Source: Undaria pinnatifida
Taxonomy: Eukaryota; Sar; Phaeophyceae; Laminariales; Alariaceae
DNA length: 64,000 nucleotides
Direction of reading: 5' to 3'
NCBI GenBank assembly: GCA_012845835.1
Contig: JABAKD010000016.1
Location: 8,694,121-8,758,120 of the forward strand
Within the stretch, counting starts at the first letter, position 1. Every line of letters begins with the position of its first letter. Both the position numbers and the translations under genes were made by a program. The notes under the pieces were generated by a model. The model was not told the DNA's origin. It did no database searches and saw only the letters and a list, made by a program, of their open reading frames with translations. Positions 9,618 through 30,553 of the stretch are shown here, in pieces.

Positions 9618-10121
9618 TTGATATCATCTCGGGCTCTGTATCCACGTAGCTCTACGTTTTGGGGTACTTCTATTGATAGTGTAAATGTTGTCACCCGTAG
9701 TAACACATGCCGTTTTTCAACAGCATTTGCTGCGCCTGCTCCGTTGACTATAACATGCGTCTTCTACGATCGTTTTTGCGTGGTTCCCAGAACAAGCCTT
9801 CTCGTTGATCGCGCCGCTGTCGTGTCTTCGTTTTGTGTGTGCTCTTGTTCACCAGGTCGCCCTTTCCTGCTTAACACACTTGACGGACATTCGGGATCCC
9901 CACGCCCACTGAGATCACTCCCTTCCCACCCCTTCCCCGCCCCCGACCGCCCTCTACCCGAAAAAGAACGGGGAGGGCACTCCAAAGAACGAGATTCTGG
10001 CCACAAACACAACAATAAGGGACTTCGCGACCAGCTAAGTGCTACCGACGTCAATGACTTTTTGCCGGCAGCACCTTTACCGCACCCCTCGTTCCACATC
10101 ACCAGCTCAGCCACGGACATC

Positions 10122-11540
10122 ATGCACGGTGAGGTTGGGGTGCGCGCCCAGCAACAAATATCCGTCTGCGCGGACGTGACTGCCGACGGTCATCTGCCAT
10201 TGTCGCCACCGCCAATGTTGTCTGCGGTTCGGAACGCGCAAGGAACCGCTGACGCTCACTTGGAGGATTCTCCTGATGCACACAACTCTTGGACATGGAG
10301 GCCGGACGGCGCATCCGAGTGGGTGTGGGATTCCACCCCTGGTAGGCAGGGCAGAGAGAGGTTCGAGGCGGGGTCGCCGTGGGATGCACTGCGAGCAGGG
10401 CATCGGTCGCTGCAGACTTCGACGTCAGCCCGAGCCCTTGGTACCTCAGAATCATCTGGCTCCGATTCTTTCGACGGGACGCTATCGCAAAAACTGGAGA
10501 GTATCGCAACCAGCGACGATTGGGACGGGGAGCCTGGCGGGGAGCGCCCATTTTTGCGTCGCGCTTGGAGTGCACCGCGGGCATGTGCAGAAGGGGGCGC
10601 GTGGATCTCACAGGCGCCTCGAATGGACATGTTGACGAAAGTTCCCGTCGCAGGGCATTCGTCGACAACGTTCTTCCTTGACGAGGCGCTTGATGCTGAC
10701 GCTTGGGCGTCTGGGGGGGGGCGGAAGCAGCAACTACAGCAGCTGCGGAAAAGTTGTCTGACGAATACCGGTGACAGGGAGGGGAGACTTCCACCAATCC
10801 TGTTAAACCCGGCCCTTTCCGACGACTCGAGAATACACCCCCCGCGGAGCAATCATTCCAATCTCCCGGGGAATAGTTGGGCGTTTTCGCCGATGGTCTT
10901 ACGGAAAGACGACGCCGGAAGTCTGGGGCGCGCGCTAACTGAGATGCAACCAAGAGACTTAAGTTCCCGCGCACAGCAGTCGGCGGGGGCGGGGGCGGGG
11001 GCCGTGGTTGGTGGAGCAGCGGGAATGGACCCCGTCGCGGCGGTGGGCACAGCCTCGTCGGTGTGGGTCTCGCGGCACGTGGACTACTCAAGCAAATTCG
11101 GCCGACTGTTCCTCCTTACGGACGGGAGCGTCAGCATACTCTTCAACGACGACACCAAGATGGCTATTGAGCCCACCGGGGTTGCATTCGACTACGTGGA
11201 GCACTCGGTCGTCCGTAGGTCTCGACAAGGAGTGGAGCTGGCGGCGACGCGAGGTCGGGGTCAGGGTTGCGGCAGTTCAGGGCTGCGGTGTTTGAAAATG
11301 AGGTACACGGTAGATTTTTTCCCGTTTTTCCTCAAGAAGAAGGTGCAAATCTTGAGACACTGTCGAGACCGGATGTTTCCAGAAGGAAGCCAGTTGGTAA
11401 CCGGACAGGCACCGGTGGCGAGCGGGCAAGGGGGACTCGAACTGGGCGGTGGGCTCACCGAACGACCAATAACTTTCGTCGAAAGGTGGCAGAGATCGAG
11501 CAGAACGTTCTGTTTTCGGCTGAGTGATCAAAGTGTGCAG
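10122..11540 (+). CDS. polo-box domain protein, large exon (polo box 1 and start of polo box 2)
   Basis: The exon ends in a polo-box region like the C-terminal half of Polo-like kinases, a phosphopeptide-binding module that targets the kinase to centrosomes, kinetochores or basal bodies. Counted from the ATG at 10,122, the first box begins near residue 315 with VWVSRHVDYSSKFGRLF, continues with DGSVSILFNDDTKMAI and FDYVEHS, and closes with FLKKKVQILRHCRDRMF. The start of box 2 follows (FVERWQRSSRTFCFRLSDQS, about 452-473) and runs exactly to a CAG|GTGAGA donor at 11,540. The first 300 residues are Ser/Pro/Gly-rich without a fold. The frame stays open upstream to 9,618 without an ATG, so the true start may lie in an earlier exon. 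No kinase domain is visible in the window. A small basic Gly/Arg-rich insertion interrupts box 1. Confidence 0.8.
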
Positions 11541-12841
11541 GTGAGAGCCTTTTTATGTACGCCCGGTCGACGCTTCCGTTAGCGATAGTTCGAGAATGTT
11601 TCGCCTGTTGCAGGCATCTTGAGCTACTTATACCCTACAGACGCCATCTTGTGTGCAAAGGGACGGCAAGGACGATGGGCGAATTACGTCTCCCACCAGG
11701 CTGTTAGATGTGGGCACATGCGAACCAAACCGTATTGAGCGTGTTCACACCGGTGTGGCTGATTTTCGAAGTCACCGTCGCGTGTCAATAACTCCTTTCG
11801 AACAGTACCAACGACCAATGTTGCTACGGTAGGGGAGGTCCCTTTTGGGGGTCTTTCGTTGTACAGTGGCCTAGGGTCACTCGCGCTAGTGGCCCCCCTG
11901 TTGTTCCTTGCAACCATAGGCTTTCGTGCTGATTCAATTTTGCCGATATGAACCTCCAACGGGGGAGTTGGCTACGCTGCACCAAGCAAACCGCCTCAAG
12001 TATTTTCGTCAGTGCGGCACAGAGTCACTCGTGGTACGTATTAATAGTGACTCAAACCTGGTGAAAAATGGGGTATTAGCAAGTATTAACATCCCCCCTA
12101 CCGTCCCCTGGCCTTGGTGTAACACTGTTGGGGACAAACTGCTTACAATTGGTGCGTGAAAAAAACACGCAGGCTCATAAGGGTTAGTTAGGTGGCTCAG
12201 TGCAGATATATGTTTTGAGCAACGGGCCGGACTTGAGCTCCGGCGCGCGTGTCGATCGCTCTCGATGAAGGAGGTTCGTCAAGGAAGCTGTACCCGTTTC
12301 GCACTATATAGACGCCTTGAACACTAACCCTGTCGTAATTTCTACTCATACGCTTTCCCAGCCATGCAAAAATCCGCTTGGACAGGCTCCGCTTGGACAG
12401 GTTGTCCCCAATTTACGAAGCATGTCGTGTGCGGGTGCCTTCAATGAAGATTTTTTCAACGCCGCCCCAAGGGGTCGGGAATGGTTGTTACCTCATGGCG
12501 AAAAGTATGAGCACACCGCCAAGTCGATTTCGGGCCCGCGACCGCATTCGACAATCTAGTGATACAAGTAGAAGCACAGAACACCACAAATATGGCTTTA
12601 GTCTGCCTCACAGTTTCGAAGGACTTACATATCGGGATGTTTCGGAGCTACCAAAGCAGTTGACTTCCAAGGTATTGTAAGTTGGGTACTCCCAAGAAGA
12701 TGGAAGCCTTCCATTCTCCCAGCAGTCGATCTCAAGGGGGGCTGACCCTCCTCAAACATACGCTGTGACGTCTAGCCCTCCGCATCACTGCATCCGTTTG
12801 ACACGACCGAGTCGGCCTTGTTTTGCTGTTTTTTCGATCAG
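11541..12841 (+). other. intron 1 of the polo-box gene
   Basis: Phase-0 intron of 1,301 bp with GTGAGA donor and TTTTTTCGATCAG acceptor. It joins box 2 strand 1 (LSDQSVQ) to VVYGDGTEMLL, which matches the usual continuity of a polo box. It contains a dispersed repeat at about 11,870-12,110. Confidence 0.65.
11870..12110 (+). repeat. dispersed repeat family R, copy 1
   Basis: The block shares TCACTCGCG...CCCCCCTGTT, TTTTGCCGATATGAACC, GCGGCACAGAGTCACTCGTG and GGTACGTATTAATAGTG with the block at 45,365-45,610, in the same order and orientation and with small indels. Both copies end in a run of C after TATTAACA. Its class is unknown. It lies inside intron 1 of the polo-box gene. Confidence 0.65.
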
Positions 12842-16726: not shown

Positions 16727-17736
16727 GTTTGCTGAAACTATATAGATATGGAGATGCGATTGAGAAAAAGAAAAAAAAAAAAGTCTGACTCATGCTTACT
16801 AAGAACTGTTGGGTCGAAAATTGGTTGTTTTTTTTTGGGGGGGGGGTAGGGATTATTGAGAATTGTTTAAGATTGTTTCGGCGACAACGACTTTGGTGTG
16901 ATCATACATACCAGGATTTCGGCACGCTGAAGGCAGAAACGTTGGAAATGATGGTAAAATACCATCAGGAGGCCTTCACTAAGGCTTGGGTCTTTCTAGC
17001 ATCAACTTCCCGTCATGGCGAGGACGACCATATATTTGTGACTTTTTTTTTTTTCCCCTGGAAAAGGGGCGAAGTACCGCCATTTCTTGGCCGACTGATG
17101 TTTTTTCGGCCTTTCGCCCATGCAGGGTAATGCGGGAAAAGGAAAAAACAAAAGAAGGGAGATTCAAGTAAAACAAAAAACAAAAAAAAACATTAGAACA
17201 CTGTCGCCTATGGCATCGGATCGGGCACAGTTAAGGGTCCATGTAATCATGACGGACTTTTGCCTGCGAACGGAACAGAGGAATTATTCATTGTAGTTTT
17301 ATCTCTGGAACTGCTCCAGACGCAGCAACCGATCGTTCACGTATATTTTGTTATCCACTGCGATGCTCGCGTTCGTTGGTTTGGCACTTTTAATGCTCGG
17401 CATCGACTTAACTCATCGTGCAGATGCAAAGCGCATTACCCTCGATTCCAAGCGCCAGTGTACCTCGCCCGATCTGGGAATTGGAAGCATCGTCTGGAAA
17501 ATCAAAGGCTTCGATGCTATTTTATAAAGACATCCTACCAACGTAAGCTGTGAGTTCGACAAACCTAGAGTCGATATTTGATATTTGCAAGCTGCGTGGT
17601 ACACCGGTCGTTCGTTTTTAATTTAGCTATTTATGTGGTGCCACCTTTCGCACATGTTCTGGCCAGAAGCCGCTTAGAAACACAACCATGGTTGGAGAAC
17701 ACAATCGTTGAGCGTAAGAGGTCCCTACTGCATACA
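16727..17736. other. no gene recognised; 5' flank of the chromovirus
   Basis: No supported gene. Poly(A), poly(T) and poly(G) runs are frequent. A 26-bp string GCAAGCTGCGTGGTACACCGGTCG near 17,589 recurs near 52,058. The chromovirus target duplication TACA lies at 17,733-17,736. Confidence 0.4.
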
Positions 17737-18005
17737 TGTTAAATTAAAGGGTGGGGACACAGAGTGCCCCCTGCAGGTCTGCCAATTGAGCAGGTCCTCG
17801 GAGAGTACTCGCTTTCGTTCCTTCGTAGAGATGTAGCTTTATTCGTTTCCACCAGAGCCCGGGATAGCTTCTGAGATCGGAGGCACGTGCCTCCGATCTA
17901 CTTCTTAACTTTCCCGAATATAAAACGCCAACCTTATCATACGAAACCCATCCAAATGATCTCAAATTCGGATACCTACAGGCCTTTCGAGGCCGTATCT
18001 TAACA
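17737..18005 (-). repeat. 3' LTR of the chromovirus (element is on the minus strand)
   Basis: 269 bp, TG...CA termini. On the minus strand it holds a TTTTATATT box near 17,923, a 26-bp perfect palindrome at 17,874-17,899 and an AATAAA signal at 17,838-17,843. The U3-R-U5 order is therefore plausible, with the palindrome between promoter and polyadenylation signal. Confidence 0.95.
17874..17899. promoter_or_regulatory. 26-bp perfect palindrome inside the LTR
   Basis: AGATCGGAGGCAC followed by its exact reverse complement GTGCCTCCGATCT. It is centred on CACGTG (E-box like) and intact in both LTRs. In RNA it would form a 12-13 bp hairpin in the predicted leader or R region. Confidence 0.8.
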
Positions 18006-18009
18006 CTAG

Positions 18010-18017
18010 CCCACCCT
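18010..18017 (-). other. candidate polypurine tract
   Basis: On the minus strand AGGGTGGG sits four bases before the 3' LTR, where plus-strand priming would start. It is short, so only tentative. Confidence 0.45.
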
Positions 18018-18212
18018 GATGAGTCGCATATGCAGAAATATCGGAGATTCGGGGAAACTCCGGTTCTACGAACTAGACCATGAGTCGAAGATGCGGCTCC
18101 TCAAAACCCACTCCCACACCTCTAACCGTCTGGCTATGGAGCCAGGAGCACGCGAAGAAAAGCAGTCGAAAGAAAAGCAGACCCTACAGCAAGGCAATAG
18201 TCACCCATCAAA

Positions 18213-18313
18213 AACCTGCCGCATGCCGCCGGTGTGGCGGGGGGGGGGCAGAAAAGGCTCTAGAACCTGCCGCATGCCGCCGGTGTGGCGGGGGGGGCAG
18301 GAAAGGCTCTACG
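18213..18313. repeat. tandem 51-bp duplication in the chromovirus 3' noncoding region
   Basis: Two adjacent units begin at 18,213 and 18,264, each starting AACCTGCCGCATGCCGCCGG and containing a run of 8-9 G. The region 18,018-18,818 between the polyprotein end and the LTR has no other recognisable content. Confidence 0.8.
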
Positions 18314-18818
18314 GCAAACCAACCACAGAAAAGGTACTATGGCGAGGCGAGCCCACGTCGATATGGAGGGGAACACAGGCGCTAACACAAGGGAGAAGTC
18401 ATGCGAAAAACCTCCCGCGGGCCATCGGCAAGGCGGGGGGTTAGACGAGGAAACGACGAATACCCGGGATGGAAGGTGTCAACAACTACAGCCCCGCTAG
18501 GGGAGGAAATGTTTAGACGAAAAAAAACAAAGCAGAACAAATACAACACACAAAACATAAAAGATGACACACAGACCCGTACACTGGTCGTCCCCCGGCT
18601 CTGGGCTGAGGAGGGCGTCGGCAGGGCGAAATTGAACAATGACAAAAAGGCGACAGCCCTGCGCCTCAGATAGCGGCGTTTTACCGGAACCCTGACCCGG
18701 CACTGAGCAGGGGGTTCGGCAGGACAGAAAAAAAAAATGGAAAGAACCGCCCCAAAACTCGATGAAGACCCTCAGGACACTACAAACGACCCAAAGACGA
18801 AGACGCAAAACTCATAAC

Positions 18819-19560
18819 TCAAAAAAATGAAGAACTATCGAGGAGCGGTGGTGGCTTGGAAGTCAACTGGCCACGGCCGCGCCTCGAGATTCGTCTACGT
18901 TTCGTTGGATTCCCCGAGGAAACGCACTGGCGATGTGAACTTGCAAGCACCAAGAGCCTCGTACGGCTCCCGTTGAGGTCGTGTAGCGCGCCGGGGGGAA
19001 GAGGGAGTTTAATCGGTCCCGGGTCGTCCAGAAAGCGGACCAGGTATGCCTTGTCCTCGGTAGTGCTCGCGCTGATTTTTCCGAGCCACCATAAGCCATC
19101 GTCTCCCTTGTACCGAAAGTGGGCTCCCTTAGGGAGTACTGTGTCGTGGTAGCGACGAAGCCAATCGGTGCGGGGAACACAGGCGTAGCCCGGCGCTAGG
19201 AAACGTTCCCCGTTGTTGCGGGAGAGCTCACGCTGTGCCGCTCCGATCCGCATTCGGCGGTAAAGGCGGTTGGTTTGGCGGTGCTGGTCCGGGGTTCCGG
19301 TCCAAAAACGCAAGATGTGGGAGCGGGAGAGGTGAAGGTCCATTTCCCGCTCCCAGGACGGTTCGGAGAATCCCGCCCAGTGCGTCTTGTATAGCACCGC
19401 GATGACGCCACCTCGCCCCCGTACCGACTGATGACCAGTGATCTGCTCCACCTCCAGCCCTTGGGGGGGAGTCGAAACGTCGTCTTGAGTGACGTGGTAC
19501 GGCGGGGACTTCTTGGAAAATTTGTTGAGCACATACTGTGTCAGCCCCGCCGGGTGGGTA
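18819..19560 (-). CDS. chromovirus pol C-terminus: chromodomain and Tudor/SH3-like tail
   Basis: Last part of the polyprotein. The chromodomain (about 19,457-19,299) reads LEVEQITGHQS, VIAVLYKTHWAGFSEPSWE and SHILRFW. That corresponds to the usual vEkIldhR, YLVKWkGysxxxnTWE and LxxYW pattern, with aromatic cage positions largely kept. Chromodomains at this position steer integration towards methylated-histone chromatin. A second small domain (about 19,136-18,993; HFRYKGDDGLWWLGKI, KAYLVRFLDDPG) resembles a Tudor or SH3-like barrel. The frame differs from the integrase C-terminal frame; the switch lies near 19,530-19,560. Stop at 18,819-18,821. Confidence 0.8.
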
Positions 19561-20298
19561 TTTGGGCATGTCCCCGCTGTCGTGGGGGTTGGCACAGGGT
19601 TTGAAGCGCTCGATGGCCACACGCCGACGAGCGTCCGAACCAGGCAGGTCGGAAGGGAGATCCAAATAAAGGAGGTTGCTCCCGAGCGGCGAGCCGTCCG
19701 GGGTCTCGGCGGCGGAGCAGGGACCGACGGCCAAGACCTTGTATGGGCCCGTCCAATTAAGTGCGAGTTTGGCCTTGAGTACCTTGGCGTCGGTATTCGC
19801 CTTCACACCCTGGCGGATGGTAGAGGCAGAATTGTATACCCATGCCCAACCACCCACAGTGAAGTTAGGTGCTGGACGCAGCGCGTTGGCGAGGGCGGAG
19901 TTTCTGCGGTTAACACGGGAAACGGTGAGGGCGTGGTGTGCGCGGACAATGTCGTTCGCGCGCTTTTGCCGGTCGATGGCCAAATCGTAATAGGCCAGGT
20001 GGTCACGGGCCAGACTCTGGTGTCGCACGACACCTGTGCGGTCGAAAATCGTCAGGGGGAGCCGTGGTAGTCTGCCCATATGGACCTCGTTGGGCGCCAA
20101 ACCCGTCGCCGCGCTGACAGAGTTGTTGTAAGCGAATTCGACGTGGGGCAGATGCAAGTCCCAGTCGTCTTGTCGCTCGTTGACGACCATAGCCAGCATT
20201 TGTGCCATAGTGTGATTCACCCGCTCAACGCCCCCGTTACAGTTGGGATGATATGAGCTTGTAGCAAGCTTGTGTACACCTAACAGCTGATATACAGC
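19561..20298 (-). CDS. chromovirus integrase C-terminal part with GPY/F module
   Basis: Continues the integrase after an in-frame TAA at 20,299-20,301. The catalytic Glu lies in SYHPNCNGGVERVNH, the usual third acidic residue of the DDE triad. Then come WDLHLPHVEFAYNNS and a Pro/Leu-rich LPRLPL segment. The GPY/F module follows as KLALNWTGPYKVLAVGP (around 19,745), a hallmark of chromoviral integrases that contacts target DNA. The open frame itself runs on to 19,228, but the true reading leaves it before the chromodomain. Confidence 0.85.
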
Positions 20299-21090
20299 TT
20301 ATGAAAGCTTGGAGCAGCACTGCAGCCCGTTGTCCGAGAGTATGGTGCGCGGGCACCCCCACAAGGGGATGTATTGGTTCACCAGGATATTGGCTGTACC
20401 TTCCGCGGTGAACTCAGCGGCAGTGACGGGGAGCATGTCGGCCCGACGACTGAAGCGATCGGTGAACAGCAGGATGCAGGTGTTGCCTCGTGGTGTGACC
20501 GGAAGGGGGCCGAAGTAGTCAACACTGACGGCGATACCTGGACCTTCCGGCAGAGGCATTGTGATGATGGGCCAGCGGACAATCAGCCGTGGGGTTTTAC
20601 GCGCTTGGCACTTCAAGCAGTGGCGAAGCCACCACCAGGTACACACACTCATGCCAATCCACCAATAAAAACGCTCCAGCATGCGCAACGTGCGCGTGGT
20701 GCCAAGGTGGCAGGAGGCCGTCGAGTGGCAAGCTTGCATGATCCAAGGGCGCATGAGCAGGGGAACGTAGATGCGAACTGGCTCGTCGTTTAGCAAGCAA
20801 GCAGCTCGCCCCACAGAGTTCGGTTTGTCAGAGCTTGTTGGCGGGAGTGTCGGGTTACGGACGAGTAGGACGAAGTCGTCGTCGGTTGTATGTAGTCGAC
20901 CCTTACCCGCCAGTTCCTGGATGTCTGAGACGGAGGGACGCTTGGGCGAGGGGTAGTATGCCAAGAAGTCGGGTGGCAGGGCCGACGGCCGGCCGATAGA
21001 GATGTAACGTATCGTGGCGTGGCACGTCGGCTCTGCGTGTTGTTCGCGCTTCCAATCGGCTGTGAATAACGCGCGACGGAATCCGCGAAT
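20299..21090 (-). CDS. chromovirus integrase: HHCC zinc finger and DDE core (ends at a TAA)
   Basis: The reading frame enters near 21,090 (TADWKREQHAEP) and continues without ATG, as expected inside a polyprotein. The zinc-binding HHCC is seen as ACHSTASCHLG and CLKCQARK. The first catalytic Asp is in AVSVDYFGPLP and the second in TILSDNGLQ. The host-range-typical LLFTDRFSRRADM lies between them. The frame stops at TAA 20,299-20,301 between the second Asp and the catalytic Glu. The same frame continues on the far side, so a single substitution is the simplest cause. Integrase cuts host DNA and joins the element ends. Confidence 0.9.
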   Translation of the reverse strand: MRGFRRALFTADWKREQHAEPTCHATIRYISIGRPSALPPDFLAYYPSPKRPSVSDIQELAGKGRLHTTDDDFVLLVRNPTLPPTSSDKPNSVGRAACLLNDEPVRIYVPLLMRPWIMQACHSTASCHLGTTRTLRMLERFYWWIGMSVCTWWWLRHCLKCQARKTPRLIVRWPIITMPLPEGPGIAVSVDYFGPLPVTPRGNTCILLFTDRFSRRADMLPVTAAEFTAEGTANILVNQYIPLWGCPRTILSDNGLQCCSKLS

Positions 21091-21734
21091 CGTAACTCAG
21101 CAGCGTCGCCGAGGGCATCCGACCTTGTAAGTGTAGCCGGCGTTTCACCAGGAGGAGGCGTAAGCCGTAGGAGCGGAGTTCCCATAGGCTCTGCGTGGTC
21201 GTGGTCGGACGGAAGTGGTACCGTGCGGGCCGGCGGGTCGGCAAAAGTAGGGGTCGCGGCGACTGGCGGAGCTGGCCGCGGCCGTCGGGCTCGCGGCGGA
21301 GTTGTAACTCGTCTGGACGATGGCTGGGGGACCCCGCCGGGCCCAAAGCCATAGTCGACAGCAGGGGGTGCCTTACCAGCTGCTGTTGCTGAACGCCGGC
21401 GCGTCCGAGTGGAGATGCGGTCCGAAAAGGGCGTCATCGTCTGGGGCGCCGGAGATCCAGGCGAGGTTGGGACGGACGCGGTCGGGCCCATGGGCTCGAC
21501 GGGGTTTGTCCCTTGTACCGAGCTCCGGGAAGGAGTCGGTTGGGCCACTGATGTCGTGGCAGCCGGGGCTTCGGCGGAGTCCTCGTTGGTCACGGTGGGT
21601 ACAGCAAAAACCGAAGCGAAATCGTAGTCGGCTGTACGCGAGCCCCCGCCTCGGCCGGGCGAGCTATCGATGGTGGCGGTGGATGCAGAAACACGAGCGA
21701 CGAATCTCCTGGAAGGAGTAGAAAAGGTCGTCAA
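21091..21734 (-). CDS. Pro/Ser/Thr-rich linker between RNase H and integrase
   Basis: About 210 residues, strongly rich in Pro, Ser, Thr and Ala, with two similar short pieces (TADYDFASVF and PAVDYGFGPG). No fold is recognisable. The frame differs from that of the RT-RNase H part (switch near 21,710-21,740) and from that of the integrase (switch near 21,090). Chromoviruses usually have only a short tether here, so this long disordered spacer is unusual. Confidence 0.65.
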
Positions 21735-23098
21735 GCCTCATACGTGGCCCGTGTGTGCGAAAATCGCAAAAGTCGGCAAGAGTGAGAGGAAGCCCACCCA
21801 AGGCATTACTTTCGGTGCGGGGCATTAGCCCACCCAAGCCGACACCCGGTATCGGAGAAGAAGGAGTGTACAGCCCGCAAGCCCGTATGAGGTAAATACC
21901 ACTATCCTCAACAGGGGTAAGGCTCGTCGAACCATTGCGGTCGTGTTCCGTGGCAGGCTCCGGCAAGCGAGACAGGAAGTCAGCGTTGCCGTTTGCGCTT
22001 CCTTTTCGGTATTCGAGGGTGTAATCGAATGCGGTGAGGAACCCGAGCCATCTCTGGACTCGGCCGTTGTGATTCCCCATTTTGCCTATGTTTTCCAGAG
22101 CCTTGTGGTCTGAGAATATTCGGAACTTAGTGCCCCAAAGGTAGCCGCGGAGGCGCTTGAGAGCCCAGACGATGCTGCCAGCCTCCAAATCGAGAGGAGT
22201 CCAATGCCTTTCCGAGTCGAGCGTAGCTCGACTGATGTATGCGATGGGTTTTATGGAGCCGTCCGTCTGCTCCTGTTCGAGAGCGGCTCCGAACCCGTCG
22301 ATGCAGGCATCGCAGTACACGTGAAACGGGCGTGTGCCGTCGGCGACGGCGTCCCAATCAGGGAAAACGAGGACCGGCGGGGTCGTGAGCTCCGCCAAGA
22401 TTTTTCTCACCAACTTCTCCATAGCAGGCGTGAAGGCAAACTTTACCCCCTTCCGAAGGAGTGCGTTAATAGGACGAAGTCTCTTCGATAAGTCGGGCAA
22501 AAATTTGCGGTAATAGTTGATACCACCCATGAGTGCGCGCACCTGCTTAACGTCAGTGGGCATCGGCATATTGGTCAATGCCGATACTTTTTCCGAATTT
22601 GGGCGTAGGCCTGCTGGAGAAATGGAGTGGCCTAGGAAGTTCGCATCGGTAGCGCCCAAACGCGCCTTCGAGGGGGAAAGCTTGAGATTGTGCTTTCGAC
22701 GGCGTTCGAAGAGAGAGCGAATCGTCCGAACATGCGTTACCGGGTCGGAGTCGAACACGATGACATCGTCGAGGTAAGCTGCCACCTGTATCAAGCCCTT
22801 GATCACCTCATTGATAACCTTGACGAACCACCCAAGCGAGGCGCTGCTGCCCTGAGGCATAACGAGCCACTCATAAAGGCCCGTGGGTGTGCAGAACGCT
22901 GTAAGGGGAACTGTGTCCTTGTGTGCCGTTATCTGGTGGAACGAGGAAACCAAGTCGAACAGGGAAAACATCCGACCTGAGCCCAAGGAGTCCAGGACCT
23001 GGTCCACGCGCGGACTCGGCAGTTGGCTGAGCTTGCTAATTTGGTTGAGCTTCTTGTAGTTCACCGTGATCCTCACACCGCCAGATTTCTTCGCGGGA
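21664..23098 (-). CDS. chromovirus reverse transcriptase and RNase H
   Basis: RT copies the genomic RNA into DNA and RNase H removes the template. Visible RT motifs are VRITVNYKKLN, SLFDLVSSFHQI (first catalytic Asp), WLVMPQGSSAS and AYLDDVIVF (the YxDD box, about residue 101 of the open stretch). Thumb and connection motifs are FLGHSISPAGLRP, ALMGGINYYRKFLPDLS and PPVLVFPDWD. RNase H begins with FHVYCDACIDGFGAAL (first catalytic Asp) and includes IAYISRATLDSERHW (the Glu position), FRIFSDHKALENI (second Asp) and GSANGNADFLSRLP. It enters in a different frame from the preceding protease part, with net indels between 23,143 and 23,098. Open to the stop at 21,664. Confidence 0.95.
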
Positions 23099-23140
23099 TG
23101 ACCACCAGCGGGCTCGAGTACGGTGAGGTCGAGTGCTGAA

Positions 23141-24130
23141 TCAGCCCAGGTACTGGTTAAGGGTCGCGTCCACTTCTCTGGCCAGTATAGGGTTTATGCG
23201 ATGGGGTCGAGAAGTGACCGGAGCGCTGCCCTCCGGAACCGAGATTTCAAAGGGCATTAGGGAGCATGACTCAAAATCCGTCTTCGAGGTGGAGAACACG
23301 TCAGAAAAGTCGCAGAGCACATCCCCCAATTGCTCAATGGTCGGGGGGTCCCAACCAGGGCCGTGTAAGTCGAACGCAATATCCCGCAGGTGCGGTGGGA
23401 GTCGGGCCCAGACGCGTAGAAATGCAGAACGTTGGACTGGGTTCAAACGTTCCATAAGCGTCGGCGAGGGCGGCGGTACGGCGGGAACTATCCCCTCCGC
23501 GTCCGTCGGACTCGCGACCGCAGAGACCTGGCTGTCCGAAGTCTGGCCAGGGTGGGGACCCGCAGCCTTGATAGGGTGTTGCAAGGCACCCAGCGGGATG
23601 CGCAAAAGTGGGGCGTCGGCGACCCCGATAAGGTCGCCTGGCTCGAGGTCCGCGACACCTATGACGGGAAGCACCTGTCGTCCTGAAGCAACAAAGTGTT
23701 TCTGTCCCGAAAGAATATCCGGCTGCGGCAGTATGTCGACAAGATAGTGTCCTGTGAGCGCAGGAGAGCCGTTACTGCGCACCAAGTTGACCGCGAGCAG
23801 TTGGGGCTCGTCCGACAAAGTGACGCCTGTAGAGCCATCATAGCGAAGGTGGAAAGCACCGTTCGATGCTGCGAGGTCGACGGCATATGCCGCTACGCCT
23901 GCTGTGGCGTGGTGGGACAACGTCAGCTCGCCCAAAACCCTATTATCGAGAGGACGAGGGGGCAGGGCGCGGTACGAACGGGTGTTGAAGCGCATCCAAC
24001 TGTCGCGGCCCAGCAAGACAGCGTGCTGCATAACCGAAGGAGGGACCACGCATGCCCACACCACGAGAGAGCATGTTGGTTCTTTTTCGAGGAAGAATTG
24101 AACGCCCAGACGGATGTGGGTCGCGGTCCG
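23141..24130 (-). CDS. chromovirus protease C-terminal part and RT N-terminal leader
   Basis: Same frame as the protease N-terminus, separated from it only by the TAA at 24,131-24,133. It starts RTATHIRLGVQFF and reaches MQHAVLLGRDSW, the hydrophobic-LLGRD motif that closes retropepsins. A Pro-rich linker leads to LCDFSDVFSTSKTDF and PHRINPILAREVDATLNQYL, the standard lead-in to Ty3/gypsy RT. The frame stops at 23,141, while the expected continuation (GLIQHSTSPYSSPLVVI) is found in another frame directly downstream. Confidence 0.85.
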   Translation of the reverse strand, partial: RTATHIRLGVQFFLEKEPTCSLVVWACVVPPSVMQHAVLLGRDSWMRFNTRSYRALPPRPLDNRVLGELTLSHHATAGVAAYAVDLAASNGAFHLRYDGSTGVTLSDEPQLLAVNLVRSNGSPALTGHYLVDILPQPDILSGQKHFVASGRQVLPVIGVADLEPGDLIGVADAPLLRIPLGALQHPIKAAGPHPGQTSDSQVSAVASPTDAEGIVPAVPPPSPTLMERLNPVQRSAFLRVWARLPPHLRDIAFDLHGPGWDPPTIEQLGDVLCDFSDVFSTSKTDFESCSLMPFEISVPEGSAPVTSRPHRINPILAREVDATLNQYLG

Positions 24131-26281
24131 TTAAGGGGCGGATTCGCCAAAACCACCCCAGGAGCGAGGGCTGCTGGGTCGCTCGCACGCCGATGAGGCG
24201 GCGCCTACCGATAGCATACGATCCAACACGTCACGACGGATGAAGGTTTGAGGGGAGCCAGTGTCAAGCAGCGCTGTACATACGTAGGGCGCAATAGCGT
24301 CCCCTCCGCCATGTATTGCAATATCGGTAGTGAAAGGATCGTCGTCCAGCGTCACGGTACCCCCGACGAGGCAGGGGCCATGTTCTGGCAGTGCGCGGTC
24401 TGAGGCGCCGCGAGAAGCTATCGCCAAAACCTCCGGGCTTTGATCGGCGGGTGTACCCGAAAAATAGGCCGAAGGAGGGCCTTGGTCAGCGCCGACCGCG
24501 GTCCCCAAGCGCGACTGCTGAGCGGACGAAATTTCATGGATTCCAGCATTCCCGGTGGGCCTGCGGAATCGACGAGGTGAGGCCGGGTGTGGCGATCCGT
24601 CCTCGCTGTCGCGAATTGCTTCGCGAACGGCAAAGAGTGCCTCGCCGAGCAAATTTTTTCCTCTCCACTTGTGTGGATCCTTGGCGTGGGGGTCGTCCGC
24701 CCGGAGACCTATACCCCACACTGTGTCTAGAGGACTGGCCTCTGCCAGAAATTTGTTGCCAGTGCTCAAAAGGTGATTTTTCATGGCTGGGTTCTGCGTA
24801 AATTTGGCATAGTTGCCAGATAACACGGCATTTTGCTTCTCCCTGTCCCAAACGGCGGTGTCAAAGTTGCGCACGCCTCGACCGACGCGTTTGTGTGTGC
24901 TGGGGTCAGACGATGACATGATGAGCTCCACAGCGCGATGGTCTTGAAAAAGCCGAGCCTTTTCAGCCATCATGAACTGCTCCGCGCGAGAATATGAGAC
25001 GTCGTCGACGACAAACGACGAAGGAGACCACTGCGAGAAAAAGGACGGCGGTTGCCAGCACAACACTACTTTGTCTGTAGAGTATTCGAGGGAAGGGTCA
25101 AAAGTCGACGGTGCCAACCCGTCGGAGGCCGTGTTAGGCATATGAGCTTGTAATGTCCCCGTCTGGGGACACCAGTCTCTGGCACTTTGGGCCTGCAGCG
25201 TCCCCGTCTGGGAACGCCCGGCCTCGGGAGCACGACGCGAGCCCGAACCCACGGGTGGTCGCGTCGTGGCCTTGTAGCTCTTTGGCGTAAAATCGCAAGG
25301 AACTGCTCTCACTGCACCCGAAGGGACAGGGGGCTCGGAGCTGTTACTGCTTGACGAGAGACGCGATTCTTCCCTATCTTCACGGGAATAGCGTACAGCT
25401 GATCGGGCTGGAGGCCGTGGCGTCACCACTGGCCCGTTGCGCAGTGTCGGATCTATATCCTGTGCCACTGAGGCAGACGTAGCCTGGTGCACGTGGGTTA
25501 GCGTGCTTAAAGACGGAGCAGGGCCCGTAGACCCTGTGGGTGTCTTCGAGAGCGGGGCTCGGGCAAGTGGAAATAAATTCTTCGCCCGAGGGGGCTCCTT
25601 CCCGTTAGCCCTCTTGGAGGAGAGAGACGAGGTAGCTAAGCTTGTCGGCTCCTCCTTGATGGGAAAAAGGATAGAGCGCCCGCTACTATCGCGAGGAGAC
25701 ACCGGATCAAATCTTGGAAAAGATATCGGTGCATACGGGTTGGCTTTCCCACACCTCAAACCAATCGCCGCTTTACGGTCAGGAAGAGGTGGAGACGAAC
25801 CCGCTCGCGTATGGGGGCGACGCGTCGTCGCCGCAGTCTTCTTGCTGCGCGACGCGTGCCTGGGGGGAGCGTGCAAGGTGCAGGCTCCTGAGTCATGGTT
25901 GAGGGGGGCAGCATTAGGGGCGCGTGCCTCCGTTGTCGAGCTTGAGCCACGGCAGGGGTTAACGGCGTTGGAAGTGCTGGTCCCCATTGCCGAACTCGGA
26001 CCATGATCGAGGGGGGCGTCACTGTGGGCGCGCACCCCCTTCGTAGAAAATGTAACCTGGCTGGGGGGGGGCATGCTGGGAGCACTGGTCCCCACCGCCG
26101 GCACTGCGCCGTGAAAGTCATCAGGCGACGTAGGAGCCCGTGGGCTCTTGATAGAAATAATTTGCGCCGCGCCACGTGTAAGGCGAACGACAGGCACTCG
26201 AGCATCTTGTGAAAGCAAAGGAAGTGTCCCCGACAGTGCCGTCGGCGTACGGGTCGGGTGTGCCGTACCGCCGTCGCCCTG
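24131..26281 (-). CDS. chromovirus pol N-terminus: Pro/Ser-rich region, NADAR domain, retropepsin
   Basis: There is no ATG near the start; the frame opens right after an in-frame TGA (26,282-26,284). Residues of about the first 380 are Pro/Ser/Arg-rich with two QTGTLQA repeats. The NADAR (YbiA-like) domain spans about 25,075-24,600: FSQWSPSSFVVDD, YSRAEQFMMAEKARLF, YAKFTQNPAMKNHLLSTG, FLAEASPLDTVWGIGL and WRGKNLLGEALFAVRE. All the conserved blocks of the family are there, including the Glu of the AEQF block and the Glu/Asp of the LAEASPLD block. NADAR enzymes cleave N-glycosidic or ADP-ribose bonds. Next, retropepsin begins (VCTALLDTGSPQTFIRRDVL, catalytic DTG) and runs into a TAA at 24,131. 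See findings for the role. Confidence 0.92.
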   Translation of the reverse strand, partial: QGDGGTAHPTRTPTALSGTLPLLSQDARVPVVRLTRGAAQIISIKSPRAPTSPDDFHGAVPAVGTSAPSMPPPSQVTFSTKGVRAHSDAPLDHGPSSAMGTSTSNAVNPCRGSSSTTEARAPNAAPLNHDSGACTLHAPPRHASRSKKTAATTRRPHTRAGSSPPLPDRKAAIGLRCGKANPYAPISFPRFDPVSPRDSSGRSILFPIKEEPTSLATSSLSSKRANGKEPPRAKNLFPLARAPLSKTPTGSTGPAPSLSTLTHVHQATSASVAQDIDPTLRNGPVVTPRPPARSAVRYSREDREESRLSSSSNSSEPPVPSGAVRAVPCDFTPKSYKATTRPPVGSGSRRAPEAGRSQTGTLQAQSARDWCPQTGTLQAHMPNTASDGLAPSTFDPSLEYSTDKVVLCWQPPSFFSQWSPSSFVVDDVSYSRAEQFMMAEKARLFQDHRAVELIMSSSDPSTHKRVGRGVRNFDTAVWDREKQNAVLSGNYAKFTQNPAMKNHLLSTGNKFLAEASPLDTVWGIGLRADDPHAKDPHKWRGKNLLGEALFAVREAIRDSEDGSPHPASPRRFRRPTGNAGIHEISSAQQSRLGTAVGADQGPPSAYFSGTPADQSPEVLAIASRGASDRALPEHGPCLVGGTVTLDDDPFTTDIAIHGGGDAIAPYVCTALLDTGSPQTFIRRDVLDRMLSVGAASSACERPSSPRSWGGFGESAP

Positions 26282-27884
26282 TCAGTTGCCAGTGCGAAAG
26301 GTACCTGGTTGGCGCGCGTTGGGGTTTCCGCTCGGATTGTGGGTTGCCCCGAAACGCTTCCCCGGAGCAGACACGGAAGCCGAGGAGACTGGCGAGGGCG
26401 GGACAGTACCTTGTTGGCCAGGCGTGTATGTGCTGTTGTTGTTACCGCTGTGGCTGTTGTCTGTCCCTGGTCCCGTGGGTACCCTCGTGATTGGTTTGAA
26501 CGATTTCGGGGATTTTTGTTGTACGTTTGCGAGCGAGAAGACCGTCCGTCGCGGCGGTAGCTAACCATACGTGCTTGCCACCGTCGGAAAACGTCATCAT
26601 TGCCAAGTTGGCCAAGTTCAGGGTTTAGACAGCCACTGGCGTTGATAAAAGGATGCCTACAGTTGCGTAAGGAGTGAGTGTCTTCGTGACAGTTGAGGCA
26701 ATGACCCCTGTTTTCTCGGAGAGCCGCGGCGCGGGCAGAGGGCGTGAGGAGGCCGCTCCAGAGGGGAGGGTCGTCGGTATTAAACGAGGCACTAACAGCG
26801 AAAACTTCTGCATAGTGTTGTTCTTCTAGGGGCCAGCAGTTGGACATTTTGTCGAGCCAGGGGTCGGTGGAATCAACAATCGGCATGTCAATCGGATTAT
26901 GGCTCGAACCCGTCTGCCAAGAAGGCGACTGGGACAGCACTCGGCCCTGGCCGCGCCCATGAACGGCGGGCCGGGGCCCCGACGGGGCGGATGACCGTGA
27001 TCCCGTCGAAAAAACAGGTAGAGAAAAATGTTTTTCGCCGTTGACGGCAGGTTTCTTATTGTGCGCCAAGTCACTAAACGCTTTCCACATGGCATCTAAC
27101 GAGGCGCATGGCCGTGGGTCCGTAGCCTTCGAGCCAGGGTATAACGTAGGCATGAGCGTCGGAAACTGCTCGTTGACCGCCATTCTAACCACCTCCAGCA
27201 CGACATCCGTCCCCGGGGACAAAACACGCTCACTCCCCGTGACTGCCGATACTAGCACACGGAACTCCCGACTAAAATCAGAAAAAGGCGTGCCGTTACA
27301 CACTCCAAAAGTGTGCAACTTAGTGTAGCCTTCGCCCGTGTCGACCCGGTCAAAGTGCGTCACGAGCAGGCGTAGCAGGAGGGTGAAAGCCTCGGGCCCA
27401 GATGCCCCTCCGTCCAACGCTCTTGACACCTGTTCAAAGAAATCGTCGATCAAGGTGGTCATGCGAGCGGTCGTGGGCCTGTCAGGTGTTATGGCAAGGT
27501 TGAATGCCAGGCGGAGGGGGTGGACCCAACCAGGAACCCACGTGGGGGCACGTACACCCTCTTGGCAACGGTCGACACAGCGCATGAGTATGTCAGTCAT
27601 GGCAGACCGAACCGAACGCGTGAGTTGCTGTGTGCCGTCAGACTTGTTCAAAGAGGCGGGGAACGGTAGCACAGAAATGCGTGATACGTCCTTGTGGGAG
27701 AGCTTAACATAGGCACGCCTAACCGAGTCATCGAGCGTTGATTTAGCTAGAGCCGCGGCGGTAGCAAGTTCGGCGGTACGCTCGCGGGCCAAATCCGAAG
27801 AAACAGGCTTGGTGTGGTCGCCCGACGCAGTTAGTTTGATCAGCCGGTCGGCGGAAGAGGCAATATCCACCAGGGAAGGACGTT
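26282..27884 (-). CDS. chromovirus Gag: capsid and CCHC nucleocapsid
   Basis: Helical capsid-like sequence (WVPGWVHPLRLAFNLA, FFEQVSRALDGG, FTLLLRLLVTHFDRVDTG, FSDFSREFRVLVSAVTG) is followed by a single zinc knuckle CLNCHEDTHSLRNC (CX2CX4HX4C) at about 26,700. A basic, Asn/Gln-rich tail comes after it. After the knuckle the natural frame probably shifts into the pol frame (between about 26,545 and 26,440) and ends ...TFRTGN at the TGA 26,282-26,284. One frame remains open down to 25,756, but it is only a shadow there. Gag packages the element RNA. The start is unclear: the frame opens at 27,884 without ATG, and sequence upstream in other frames looks continuous with it. Confidence 0.8.
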
Positions 27885-27936
27885 ACTTGCCTCCTGCCAG
27901 CTACCACTGTCACCTGGCCGTGGTCCGTGTTCGAGC

Positions 27937-29232
27937 TCAAAGACGAGCGGGAGGACGTTGACGAGTCGTCCCACGCTGAGGGCCCTCGTGCGCTGTTTCG
28001 CCGTCCTCCGGTGCTTCCTCCCGAGCTGCGACCGCCGTCCCGGTTGGTTCGGGCCTGGTTGCTCCCTTGGCGGCCCTGTGGGCCACCACCAGTACCCGAC
28101 GATCCTCCCGCGCTTCCACCACCGTTGCCACCACCGCGGCGGTTGTGGTGGCCACCACTCCCACCATTTTCCCGTTTCCCCCACTCTGGCCGCCACCACC
28201 CCCGGAGTTACCACCTCCACGGTTGCGGTCCCCCCGATCACGGCTGCCACCGCGCCGCTGTTTGGTGAAGCGCCTTCCTTCCAGCGCTTCCTTTGGAGTC
28301 GGCCACAGGACTGGGTCAGGGGCGTTGTCGTGGGCCAATCTTAAGGCTTTGACCAAAGCGAGGGTAGGTGCTCGCCTCATCTGCCCGAAGGCGGACGAGG
28401 TGTCGCGGCGAGCCCAGACTGCTCCGACCGAAAGGTCTTCTGCCTTGAACGACGACCATCGCTCTGAAGTTAGAAGGGCCGTGGCCGCTGCTATCACCGC
28501 CTCCGCCAGATGCGCCGAGAACTCGACCCTCGGCGTGGTAGCCATGTACTGGACGCTGCCAGACATGAAAACGTCGTCCCCGGGTCGTGTATCTTGGGAG
28601 GCAACACCCAGCGGGCGCGCCGAGGAAGGGGCAGCTCTCGCCGGAGTCGATGTAGCTGAGAGGGCAACGGCTTGGCGTGCCCTCTCTACCGCGCGGGACG
28701 CCTCGCGAGCAGCGGCCTTCGCCTGATCGATGGCGTGATCCTCACGGCGTCGACGTTCGTCATCGAGCCGTCTGCGTTCCTCTCGTCGAAGCAGGGTCGC
28801 GTTGGCTTCGTCGAGAGCTCTTTGGGCCCGAGAAATTTCAGACTCTGAGTCTGAGGGGCCGGCATGGGAGCGCTGGTCTCCGTAGCTCTGGGGAAGGCGC
28901 TCTGTCGAGCGCGGAGAGGTCAGATGTCGACGGTGGTGCTCTGAGGACAGCTGGAGATGCTCCCTCGAGGCTGGGGATATTTGTCGTCGTGATGTCTCCG
29001 CGCCCGGTAGGAGTTTTTCCGCCTCGTCGACCGGCGAGTCGGGGTGGTCGGTCGCTGTGCCGTGTTGTTGACTCGTGTTGGAGTCACTATCGTCGTCAAG
29101 GTTTTCGGCGCGTCCTCCTCGTCTCGATTCGCGGGACCTCGAGCGTTCCCGTCCTTCTCCCTGGGCCTCCTGGATGGGGCGCGTGGAGGACCGCAGCCTG
29201 CCCGAGTAGCCCCCATCGTCACTGGTGGACAT
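27937..29232 (-). CDS. chromovirus first ORF: coiled-coil and RGG-rich leader of Gag
   Basis: Starts at a true ATG (29,232; MSTSDDGGYSGRL). Residues about 1-130 are Ser/Arg/Glu-rich and likely disordered. Residues about 145-205 are a charged helix suited to a coiled coil (RREERRRLDDERRRREDHA). A folded-looking segment follows (FSAHLAEAVIAAATALLTSE), then a Gly/Arg-rich end (GGNSGGGGGQSGG). Around 28,177 the RGG-rich coding sense moves to another frame (HHNRRGGGNGGGSAGG), consistent with a one-base change in a G5 run. So the stop at 27,937 is probably not the natural end, and this ORF likely belongs to one Gag protein with the capsid. Confidence 0.7.
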   Translation of the reverse strand: MSTSDDGGYSGRLRSSTRPIQEAQGEGRERSRSRESRRGGRAENLDDDSDSNTSQQHGTATDHPDSPVDEAEKLLPGAETSRRQISPASREHLQLSSEHHRRHLTSPRSTERLPQSYGDQRSHAGPSDSESEISRAQRALDEANATLLRREERRRLDDERRRREDHAIDQAKAAAREASRAVERARQAVALSATSTPARAAPSSARPLGVASQDTRPGDDVFMSGSVQYMATTPRVEFSAHLAEAVIAAATALLTSERWSSFKAEDLSVGAVWARRDTSSAFGQMRRAPTLALVKALRLAHDNAPDPVLWPTPKEALEGRRFTKQRRGGSRDRGDRNRGGGNSGGGGGQSGGNGKMVGVVATTTAAVVATVVEAREDRRVLVVAHRAAKGATRPEPTGTAVAAREEAPEDGETAHEGPQRGTTRQRPPARL

Positions 29233-30260
29233 GATGCCTCTGCAAAAATGATGGTGGTTGAAGCTACGCGACGCACAGCAGTAGTGGAACGCTGTTGATC
29301 GAGAAAGATCAGAGAGGGGTCCGAGGTGCGTCAAATTAGTAGCAGTACTAATTTCGGAAGAAAGGGAACAGCTGTTTCTTCGACGCACAAGACGGATCGA
29401 CGTATGTACTGAAACCCATACGATAACGCGTGTACTGGAAAATTCGCCAAACGAAAAAGCCCAAACATTCCACGAGCACCGCCTGTTCCTTCCCACGGGT
29501 AGATCACAAGGAAGAAGCCCCGACATGAGCTCCTAGAGCACTGTGCCCGTAGTCCAAGGGGGTCCCGCGAAGGGCGGTCTGGCTCCGACAGCAAAGGTGT
29601 ATGCTGGTCGATGGGCTCTCTCAGCAAGCGAAGTCCCCGTCGAAGGTCATTCGAAGGGTTGATTCCAGTATGCTTGTCCGTGGCGTGTCGTGCATATGCC
29701 TCCGAGCCTCAAAGCGCGAAAAAAAAAGTACGAGTCGATGGCCGATCTTGGGGCTTGTGCTGGCAACTCGCGGAGATGTGCTGTGCAACATGCTGGCAGA
29801 GCGCGGAGCAAACAAGTCTGATGGGTGGGGCTCGGGCAGTTCCACTGCGGAGTGGTCTATGACCAGCTGGCGGTGAACTGATGCAACCAAAGGCCGGGAC
29901 GAGGAGTGTGCTCCGAAGAGCAGTGTCGTCCGCCCGTACTCGGAAGGTATCCTCTGTGTGGTGCGTGCCCAGCAACCAACAGAAGGGACCAAAACTCGAG
30001 ACGAGGAGTGTGCTCCGCAGAGCAGTGTCGTCCGCACGTACTTGGAAGGTGTCGTCCGTGTGGTACGTGCGCGGCGACCAACAGAAGGGGCCCCTGCCAT
30101 CTCACTGCTGTTGTGGTCGCCGTTGTAGGAGGAAGGGCGCTCCCTCCATTGAGAAGCCACCCGAGAAGGAACAGGGGGTGTGGGCTCGATGGAAAGCAAA
30201 AGCAAAATCGCTACGAAAAAATAATCGGAGAGATTTGAGGAACGCTGCCACAATAGCATA
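29233..30260 (-). other. chromovirus 5' leader
   Basis: Untranslated leader of about 1 kb between the primer binding site and the Gag ATG. It holds the 102-bp tandem duplication. No protein motif is recognised in any frame. Confidence 0.7.
29898..30090. repeat. 102-bp tandem duplication in the chromovirus leader
   Basis: Two units starting GACGAGGAGTGTGCTCCG at 29,898 and 30,000 also share GAGCAGTGTCGTCCGC and CAACCAACAGAAGGG. They are about 85-90 percent alike by eye. Each unit contains the small inverted pair GGAGTGTGCTCC. Confidence 0.85.
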
Positions 30261-30278
30261 TCAAGCTCGTCGACGCCA
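30261..30278 (-). other. candidate primer binding site
   Basis: Two bases after the 5' LTR the minus strand reads TGGCGTCGACGAGCTTGA. The leading TGG would pair with a tRNA CCA end. The tRNA is not identified. The TRIM element at 33,024 has a similar site, TGGCGCCGTCGAC. Confidence 0.55.
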
Positions 30279-30280
30279 CA

Positions 30281-30549
30281 TGTTAAATTAAAGGGTGGGG
30301 ACAAAGAGTGCCCCCTGCAGGTCTGCCAATTGAGCAGGTCCTCGGAGAGTACTCACTTTCGTTCGTTTGTAGAGATGTAGCTTTATTCGTTTCCACCAGA
30401 GCCCGGGATAGCTTCTGAGATCGGAGGCACGTGCCTCCGATCTACTTCGTAACTTTCCCGAATATAAAACGCCAACCTTATCATACGAAACCCATCCAAA
30501 TGATCTCAAATTCGGATACCTACAGGCCTTTCGAGGCCGTATCTTAACA
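30281..30549 (-). repeat. 5' LTR of the chromovirus (element is on the minus strand)
   Basis: 269 bp, equal in length to the other LTR and differing by five substitutions. The 26-bp palindrome is intact (30,418-30,443). The target duplication TACA follows at 30,550-30,553. Confidence 0.95.
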
Positions 30550-30553
30550 TACA

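What the first reader, a model, noticed from the sequence alone, without database searches (positions are those of the whole stretch)
24600..25075. A complete NADAR (YbiA-like) domain inside a retrotransposon polyprotein
Seen: about 160 residues with every conserved NADAR block (FSQWSP, YSRAEQFMMAEKA, YAKFTQNP, LLSTGNKFLAEASPLDTVWG, GKNLLGEAL) lie in frame between the Gag/pol junction and the retropepsin of a chromovirus. Known: NADAR proteins act on N-glycosidic and ADP-ribose linkages; bacterial members remove ADP-ribose from guanine in DNA, next to DarT-type toxins, and E. coli YbiA hydrolyses riboflavin-pathway intermediates. Inference: the element may carry a nucleic-acid de-ADP-ribosylase that protects its RNA or cDNA from a host NAD-dependent defence, or repairs its cDNA before integration. 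Cleavage by the adjacent protease would release it as a particle enzyme. The domain shows intact motifs although other parts are broken.
Basis: partly seen in the sequence, partly recalled or inferred. Interest (0 to 1): 0.88.

Follow-up and report, generated by a model that had tools for sequence, protein, structure and literature searches.

The report
NADAR enzyme domain in kelp retrotransposon
A virus-like jumping gene present in many copies in a kelp genome carries an apparently intact ADP-ribose-cutting enzyme domain inside its polyprotein; the same arrangement was reported for another brown alga in 2025, and what the enzyme does for the element is untested.

Summary
On the minus strand, window 24611-25054 matches Pfam NADAR (E 4e-49) in Pol, between the Gag/Pol junction (in-frame TGA, 26282-26284) and the protease, inside a 12.8-kb LTR element (17737-30549). 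The host is very probably the farmed kelp Undaria pinnatifida. In its genome 150 NADAR places were scored of 1454 candidates; 22 lie in open frames of 2000 aa or more. Two families, A (window) and B, keep NADAR before RT. Catalytic E, K, E are all kept in 62 of 69 fetched copies; NADAR is better conserved than its flanking linkers; shared variants are depleted in amino-acid changes; the predicted fold matches solved NADARs.
The fusion is not new: PMC12477816 (2025) reports it for one Ectocarpus Gypsy lineage. New here: a second brown-algal genome, constraint measures, a TGA Gag/Pol boundary, and single-domain brown-algal NADAR genes grouping with retrotransposon NADARs. Against universal need, 11 of 12 inspected RT copies without a listed NADAR lacked it at the expected place. 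The substrate is unknown.

The parts
30281..30549 (-). 5' LTR (269 bp, TG...CA)
   Evidence: 98% identical direct repeat
17737..18005 (-). 3' LTR (269 bp)
   Evidence: 5 mismatches over 272 aligned bases
17733..17736 (.). possible target-site duplication TACA (outer flank, low side)
30550..30553 (.). possible target-site duplication TACA (outer flank, high side)
25756..27882 (-). Gag frame with CCHC knuckle CLNCHEDTHSLRNC; the Gag end RQPGTFRTGN lies in another frame, so Gag is frame-shifted in this copy
26282..26284 (-). in-frame TGA at the Gag/Pol boundary (RQPGTFRTGN*QGD)
25103..26281 (-). Pol N-terminal linker, Ser/Thr/Pro-rich, poorly conserved between families
24590..25102 (-). NADAR unit (Pfam match 24611-25054, plus about 16 N-terminal residues with counterparts in algal and bacterial NADARs)
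23981..24298 (-). retropepsin region (LLDTGSPQTFI, by motif); frame ends at 24131
22621..23091 (-). reverse transcriptase (YLDD)
22027..22335 (-). RNase H
20245..20763 (-). integrase H2C2 and core, broken frame
18866..19676 (-). integrase C-terminal region: chromo-like (sub-threshold) plus a conserved Trp-rich stretch, frame-shifted

Best explanation
A Ty3/Gypsy retrotransposon of a brown alga carries a complete YbiA-family NADAR domain as a resident part of Pol, between the end of Gag and the protease. Shown by sequence: the domain, its fold by prediction, conserved ADP-ribose-contacting and catalytic residues, presence in two diverged families with many open copies, and a signature of purifying selection while the families spread. 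Inferred: Pol is made as a minor product by read-through of the in-frame UGA after Gag, so NADAR enters the virus-like particle with RT and integrase, and there hydrolyses an N-glycosidic ADP-ribose bond, most likely ADP-ribose on guanine of the element's RNA or single-stranded cDNA placed there by a host ADP-ribosyltransferase. Confidence by step: active-site-competent NADAR under selection about 0.8; hydrolysis of ADP-ribose conjugates about 0.55; nucleic-acid guanine as the substrate about 0.4; antagonism of a host defence about 0.3.
For: Pfam and PDB matches. AlphaFold2 model pLDDT 91.5, Foldseek 8bau E 1.3e-11 and 2b3w 7.4e-8, both TM(query) 0.79. P. nicotianae residues E43, K50, K75, R79, W89, E125, D130, W133 are identical in the window copy (roles from PMC11543638 section 12); Y84, D86, R93 are F, T, K. 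E43, K50 and E125 all kept in 62 of 69 copies. Families A/B (one open copy of each): NADAR 49% aa identity (150 codons) against 29% and 30% in the two flanking linkers, 56% PR, 79% RT. Variants in two or more copies 17 nonsynonymous:26 synonymous, in one copy 143:74, Fisher p 0.0018. The NADAR match starts exactly 2565 bp before the RT match in 25 A pairs and 2634 bp in 11 B pairs. TGA after RQPGTFRT in 23 of the 24 A loci in which the motif was found (30 examined) and in one B copy. P. nicotianae, E. coli and myxobacterial relatives reverse guanine ADP-ribosylation (PMC11543638, PMC11125620, passages and sections read). NADAR also sits in polyproteins of RNA viruses (PMC9503650 passages; BFVD matches such as Wenling nido-like virus 1).
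Against: No biochemical test. NADAR copies were picked by NADAR score, which favours intact domains. dS between A and B is saturated. NADAR is less conserved than RT. RT copies without NADAR at the expected place exist, three of them sharing the DNA there at 99%, so the domain is not needed by every copy in cis. TIGR02464 (riboflavin-intermediate N-glycosidase) also matches above its cut-off, so profiles do not settle the substrate. Only one short PARP match in the host genome. The diverged A copy with the lowest dN/dS has itself lost E125.
Confidence: 0.5

Rival explanations
1. The domain acts on small molecules (free ADP-ribose derivatives, cyclic ADP-ribose, or riboflavin-pathway intermediates as in YbiA), altering a host NAD-derived signal or metabolite rather than repairing nucleic acid.
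For: TIGR02464 riboflavin-intermediate N-glycosidase matches at 7.9e-43, above its cut-off; PMC9503650 passages propose low-molecular-weight targets for phage NADARs.
Against: The same paper argues that NADARs embedded in eukaryotic RNA-virus polyproteins primarily target macromolecules; the NADARs tested in the passages read remove ADP-ribose from guanine.
Confidence: 0.22
2. The domain is a binding or structural module (ADP-ribose reader) kept for assembly or localisation, not for catalysis.
For: Conservation is milder than in RT; some copies without NADAR at the expected place retain long open frames through RT, up to 1908 aa.
Against: Catalytic E43, K50 and E125 are kept as well as ligand contacts in 62 of 69 copies.
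Confidence: 0.13
3. Passenger: a captured host or bacterial gene of no use to the element, preserved only because copies are young.
For: Most fetched A copies are young: 42 of 47 are at least 97% identical to one copy over NADAR.
Against: Two families with 49% identical NADARs both keep it at a fixed position; shared variants are depleted in amino-acid changes; the same fusion is in Ectocarpus.
Confidence: 0.1
4. Chance nesting, chimaeric insertion or assembly artefact at one locus.
For: None found.
Against: 150 scored places on many contigs; fixed NADAR-RT spacing; published Ectocarpus case.
Confidence: 0.01

Closest known systems
NADAR-bearing Gypsy lineage of Ectocarpus (e.g. Gypsy-12_Ec32), PMC12477816
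   Same: [quoted passage not shown] C-terminal chromodomain reported there, chromo-like stretch here
   Different: Different host (kelp, Laminariales, inferred); no sequence comparison was possible because the supplements were not open to me; chromo-like domain here only sub-threshold
Crassostrea gigas Tx1 LINE ORF1 NADAR (same paper)
   Same: NADAR carried by a retrotransposon
   Different: LINE, in ORF1; described there as divergent
NADARs in polyproteins of nidoviruses and other positive-strand RNA viruses (PMC9503650)
   Same: NADAR embedded in a replicase polyprotein
   Different: RNA viruses with RdRp, not reverse-transcribing elements
Stand-alone NADAR enzymes: P. nicotianae 8bau, E. 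coli YbiA 2b3w, myxobacterial YbiA with YarT
   Same: NADAR domain; for 8bau and 2b3w the fold, for 8bau the active-site residues compared here
   Different: Not part of a retroelement; the myxobacterial protein is an antitoxin and was not compared here

Membership tests
NADAR superfamily, YbiA family | Profile match over the whole domain | tested here: met
   PF08719 positions 8-163 of 163, E 4.2e-49
NADAR superfamily, YbiA family | NADAR fold | tested here: met
   AF2 pLDDT 91.5; Foldseek 8bau and 2b3w TM(query) 0.79
NADAR superfamily, YbiA family | Conserved E43, K50 and the YbiA-type E125 (P. nicotianae numbers) | tested here: met
   All three in the window copy and in 62 of 69 copies
NADAR superfamily, YbiA family | Hydrolysis of guanine-ADP-ribose | not testable with these tools
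   needs an enzyme assay
Brown-algal NADAR-Gypsy lineage (Gypsy-12_Ec32) | NADAR in N-terminal Pol | tested here: met
Brown-algal NADAR-Gypsy lineage (Gypsy-12_Ec32) | C-terminal chromodomain fused to integrase | tested here: inconclusive
   PF00385 E 0.032 and 0.069 at the same place in A and B, below the cut-off; AF2 model of the region unusable, pLDDT 38
Brown-algal NADAR-Gypsy lineage (Gypsy-12_Ec32) | RT groups with that lineage | not tested
   reference sequences not at hand
Ty3/Gypsy LTR retrotransposon | LTRs, Gag knuckle, PR-RT-RH-IN order | tested here: met
   PR by its motif only
Chromovirus | RT within the chromovirus clade | not tested
   no RT tree run; the paper on Ectocarpus says its chromodomain lineages are not chromoviruses
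Chromovirus | Chromodomain at the integrase C-terminus | tested here: inconclusive
   sub-threshold only

The most novel reading that the evidence does not exclude
Gene traffic between the retrotransposon and its host: brown algae (Ectocarpus, Pylaiella, Scytosiphon) have single-domain NADAR genes whose NADARs fall among retrotransposon NADARs. With family B left out, A-type and C-type element rows plus host genes form one clade (98/94), and the host genes sit inside it with two of the three element groups (97/80). Either brown algae domesticated a retrotransposon enzyme as a cellular de-ADP-ribosylase, or the elements captured a host anti-ADP-ribosylation gene to protect their own nucleic acid. 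Both would mean that nucleic-acid ADP-ribosylation is part of transposon-host conflict in eukaryotes.
Probability: 0.3. Interest if true: 0.75.

Novelty: new member of a known kind. Interest (0 to 1): 0.45.

Why it matters
In the papers read here, removal of ADP-ribose from nucleic-acid bases is worked out for bacterial toxin-antitoxin systems, phage and single NADAR proteins; its role in eukaryotes is called unclear. A retrotransposon that keeps such an enzyme under selection would point to nucleic-acid ADP-ribosylation as something eukaryotic mobile elements meet in the cell. The kelp genome shows that the Ectocarpus report is not isolated, and offers many young copies with an intact domain, so the enzymatic question can be asked on one small protein.

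Tried and rejected
Chance or artefact: rejected. AF2 of the integrase C-terminus from two sequences: pLDDT 38, not used. Gene neighbourhoods of nearby bacterial NADARs, 9 loci: ORFs in GC-rich loci too ambiguous; nothing claimed. Rfam and tRNA scans of the window: 0 matches. Host stand-alone NADAR in the kelp genome: query P0132, 150 scored of 1666 candidates, identities 41-54%, many at NADAR places; no clear ortholog, but an intron-split gene could be missed. First tree without the N-terminal extension: A-type elements with host genes only at 63/84, and there P0193 was named as bacterial and stood with P0176. After the extension was added P0193 fell with the algal rows and was re-labelled as element-like by inference (Ser/Thr/Pro-rich linker, close variants on long unnamed contigs). 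Other rows labelled BAC in these trees are in part unnamed proteins, P0176 among them. Family B could not be placed: one clade of all element rows not rejected (p-AU 0.246); elements with B plus host not rejected (0.146, 0.156). A-type elements plus host: p-AU 0.655. Elements other than B alone as a clade: not rejected (p-AU 0.331 without B in the tree, 0.195 with B).

Rows dropped: 46 of 47 A and 17 of 22 B copies were in register; three stop-making variants there were left out of the ratios. L024 was read on the wrong strand and corrected. For one search, 75 of the 150 RT rows were used (51 A-type rows of at least 94% identity, five partial rows of that identity not taken, and 24 B-type rows) against the first 100 of the 150 NADAR places; 12 of the 21 RT places without a listed NADAR were then inspected, 451 bases each, at one place.

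Papers: PMC12477816 passages and section 5 part 1; PMC11543638 passages and section 12; PMC11125620 passages and section 6; PMC9503650 passages; PMC7058681 passages; others only in search listings. Statements on prior print rest on searches; one search was too broad to be of use.

Full report
What is there. The window holds one LTR retrotransposon on the minus strand, 17737-30549, about 12.8 kb, with 269-bp LTRs (5 mismatches over 272 aligned bases), TG...CA ends and TACA on both outer flanks. From 5' to 3' it has a Gag with a CCHC knuckle, an in-frame TGA, a long Ser/Thr/Pro-rich linker, the NADAR domain, a retropepsin motif, RT (YLDD), RNase H, integrase and a C-terminal extension. The NADAR match is PF08719, E 4.2e-49, residues 389-536 of ORF 26218-24131. 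The window copy is broken elsewhere: it aligns to an open Pol of the same family in six segments in changing frames, and the Gag knuckle and the Gag end lie in different frames.

Host. The genome held is 511,146,479 bases in 68 contigs. One contig, C34, is 16,510,065 bases long, which is exactly the scaffold N50 given for Undaria pinnatifida in PMC7058681, where 114 scaffolds total 511,280,173; I take the difference to be small scaffolds not held. I take the host to be that kelp (Laminariales).

Copies. A search of the genome with the NADAR profile scored 150 of 1454 candidates, all 150 over the curated cut-off. By my count of that table 99 of 150 have no stop inside the match, and 22 lie in open frames of 2000 residues or more. 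The 69 domains I fetched (30 + 20 + 18 + the window) fall into family A (47, the window's) and family B (22). One open copy of each compared: NADAR 49% amino-acid identity, RT 79%, PR 56%, flanking linkers 29% and 30% (only 259 of 395 codons of the first linker could be aligned). The domain sits at a fixed place: its match starts exactly 2565 bp before the RT match in 25 A pairs and 2634 bp in 11 B pairs. Working from RT instead of NADAR, 54 of 75 RT places have a listed NADAR upstream and 21 do not. Of 12 of those 21 inspected at the expected place, one holds a frame-shifted NADAR and 11 show no match to NADAR or to Pol there. Three of these, all B type, share a stretch of about 290 bases at 99% identity, which suggests a shortened derivative that has itself been copied. 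So the domain is a regular part of both families, but some copies with long open frames through RT lack it at that place; it could be supplied in trans.

Activity. The AlphaFold2 model of the domain has mean pLDDT 91.5; Foldseek puts P. nicotianae NADAR with ADP-ribose (8bau) first at 1.3e-11 and E. coli YbiA (2b3w) second at 7.4e-8, both TM(query) 0.79, and nothing else below 0.001. Of eleven P. nicotianae positions named in PMC11543638 section 12, eight are identical in the window copy (E43, K50, K75, R79, W89, E125, D130, W133) and three differ (Y84 to F, D86 to T, R93 to K). E43, K50 and E125 are all kept in 62 of 69 copies; E43 in 65, K50 in 68, E125 in 67. NCBIfam gives TIGR02464, riboflavin-intermediate N-glycosidase, above its cut-off, and the NADAR anti-phage model far below its cut-off, so profiles alone do not choose a substrate. 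Relatives from an oomycete, from E. coli and from a myxobacterium reverse guanine ADP-ribosylation (PMC11543638, PMC11125620: passages and sections read). That is the best guide to the substrate, and it is an inference by homology.

Selection. Among 46 A and 17 B copies in register, variants found in two or more copies number 17 nonsynonymous and 26 synonymous, and variants in a single copy 143 and 74 (three stop-making variants left out); Fisher p 0.0018. Under the mutation bias of the A copies, unconstrained change would give 2.70 nonsynonymous per synonymous. This is the pattern expected when the domain is under purifying selection while the element spreads and decays after insertion. Cautions: copies were chosen by NADAR score, which favours intact domains and lowers nonsynonymous counts; taken alone, the A-family contrast is weak (p 0.036 for variants in three or more copies, 0.066 for two or more). 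One diverged A copy (L097) gives dN 0.079 and dS 0.424 against L009, yet has itself lost E125. Between A and B, dN is 0.52 in NADAR against 0.86 and 0.89 in the two flanking linkers, 0.43 in PR and 0.16 in RT, with dS saturated.

How it is made. In family A the Gag end RQPGTFRTGN is followed by TGA and then Pol in the same frame. Of 30 A loci examined the motif was found in 24, with TGA in 23 and TAA in one; the window has the TGA. The one B copy examined also ends RQPGTFRTN-TGA in the Pol frame, but its CCHC knuckle lies in another frame. The simplest reading is read-through of a UGA, giving Gag-Pol as a minor product; separate initiation is not excluded. NADAR would then be packaged with RT and integrase. 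Whether the protease frees it was not tested.

Origin. Searches returned single-domain NADAR proteins named from brown algae: Scytosiphon promiscuus P0132, Pylaiella littoralis P0097, Ectocarpus P0139 and P0140; a EukProt entry without organism name, P0141, groups with them. P0132, P0097, P0139 and, in part, P0140 have a Cys-rich N-terminus. The nearest named bacterial matches are Myxococcota (Nannocystis) and Planctomycetota. In a tree of 55 rows without family B, element NADARs and these five proteins form one clade (98/94) whose sister is the unnamed P0176 (96/87), and the host genes sit inside with two of the three element groups (97/80); elements alone as a clade are not rejected (p-AU 0.331). 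With B included, the elements other than B plus the host genes still form one clade (98/91). An earlier tree without the N-terminal extension gave only 63/84 for A-type elements plus host genes. The five C-type rows are called elements by inference only. Family B is a long branch and unplaced. So one entry of this NADAR into brown algae, shared by a host gene and the elements, is supported apart from B; its direction is open. In the kelp genome itself no clear ortholog of the host gene was found among 150 scored of 1666 candidates, but a gene split by introns could be missed.

Prior art. PMC12477816 (Genome Biology, September 2025; [quoted passage not shown] It was the only paper listed in one search and, judged by titles, the only one of that kind among the 7 of one search. 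The kelp element therefore most likely belongs to a known kind; the kelp copies, the measures of constraint, the TGA boundary and the host-gene link are additions that I did not see in the parts of that paper that I read. The paper says that, Ectocarpus excluded, NADAR queries returned almost only bacteria; here Pylaiella and Scytosiphon proteins were also found.

Verdict. Observation confirmed; interpretation partly supported. Best account: a resident, probably active NADAR hydrolase packaged with Pol, most plausibly acting on ADP-ribosylated nucleic acid. Interest 0.45, because the fusion is in print and the function remains open.

Noticed in passing
window 26282-26284; L008-L037; L179: Conserved in-frame TGA between Gag (RQPGTFRT..N) and Pol: 23 of the 24 A loci in which the motif was found (30 examined) plus one B copy; suggests UGA read-through.
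   Followed up: partly
P0132, P0097, P0139, P0140, P0141: Single-domain NADAR proteins (four named from brown algae), three with a Cys-rich N-terminus and a fourth with part of it, grouping with retrotransposon NADARs.
   Followed up: partly
L187, L188, L189: Three B-type RT copies lack NADAR at the expected place and share about 290 bases there at 99% identity; possibly a shortened derivative that has been copied.
   Followed up: partly
window 18866-19300; L039 and L078 C-termini: After the chromo-like stretch comes a region conserved between A and B (GLWWLGKI...RFLDDPGPIK) without a Pfam match above cut-off; Tudor-like by eye only.
   Followed up: partly
window 29898-30089: 102-bp unit repeated about 1.9 times in the element's 5' leader.
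   Followed up: no
window 18213-18311: 51-bp unit repeated twice near the 3' LTR.
   Followed up: no
window 18262-18541; L181: A stretch beside the 3' LTR is 88% identical to DNA upstream of an A-type RT copy on another contig; probably a rearranged or nested copy.
   Followed up: no
window 9597-11579 +: Open frame of 661 aa with a POLO box (E 8.7e-11), perhaps part of a polo-like kinase gene.
   Followed up: no
P0007, P0011, P0013, P0014; P0008, P0009: Long NADAR proteins, apparently bacterial: four have long C-terminal regions without a listed Pfam domain, two also list PF10021 (P0008 PF03747 too).
   Followed up: no
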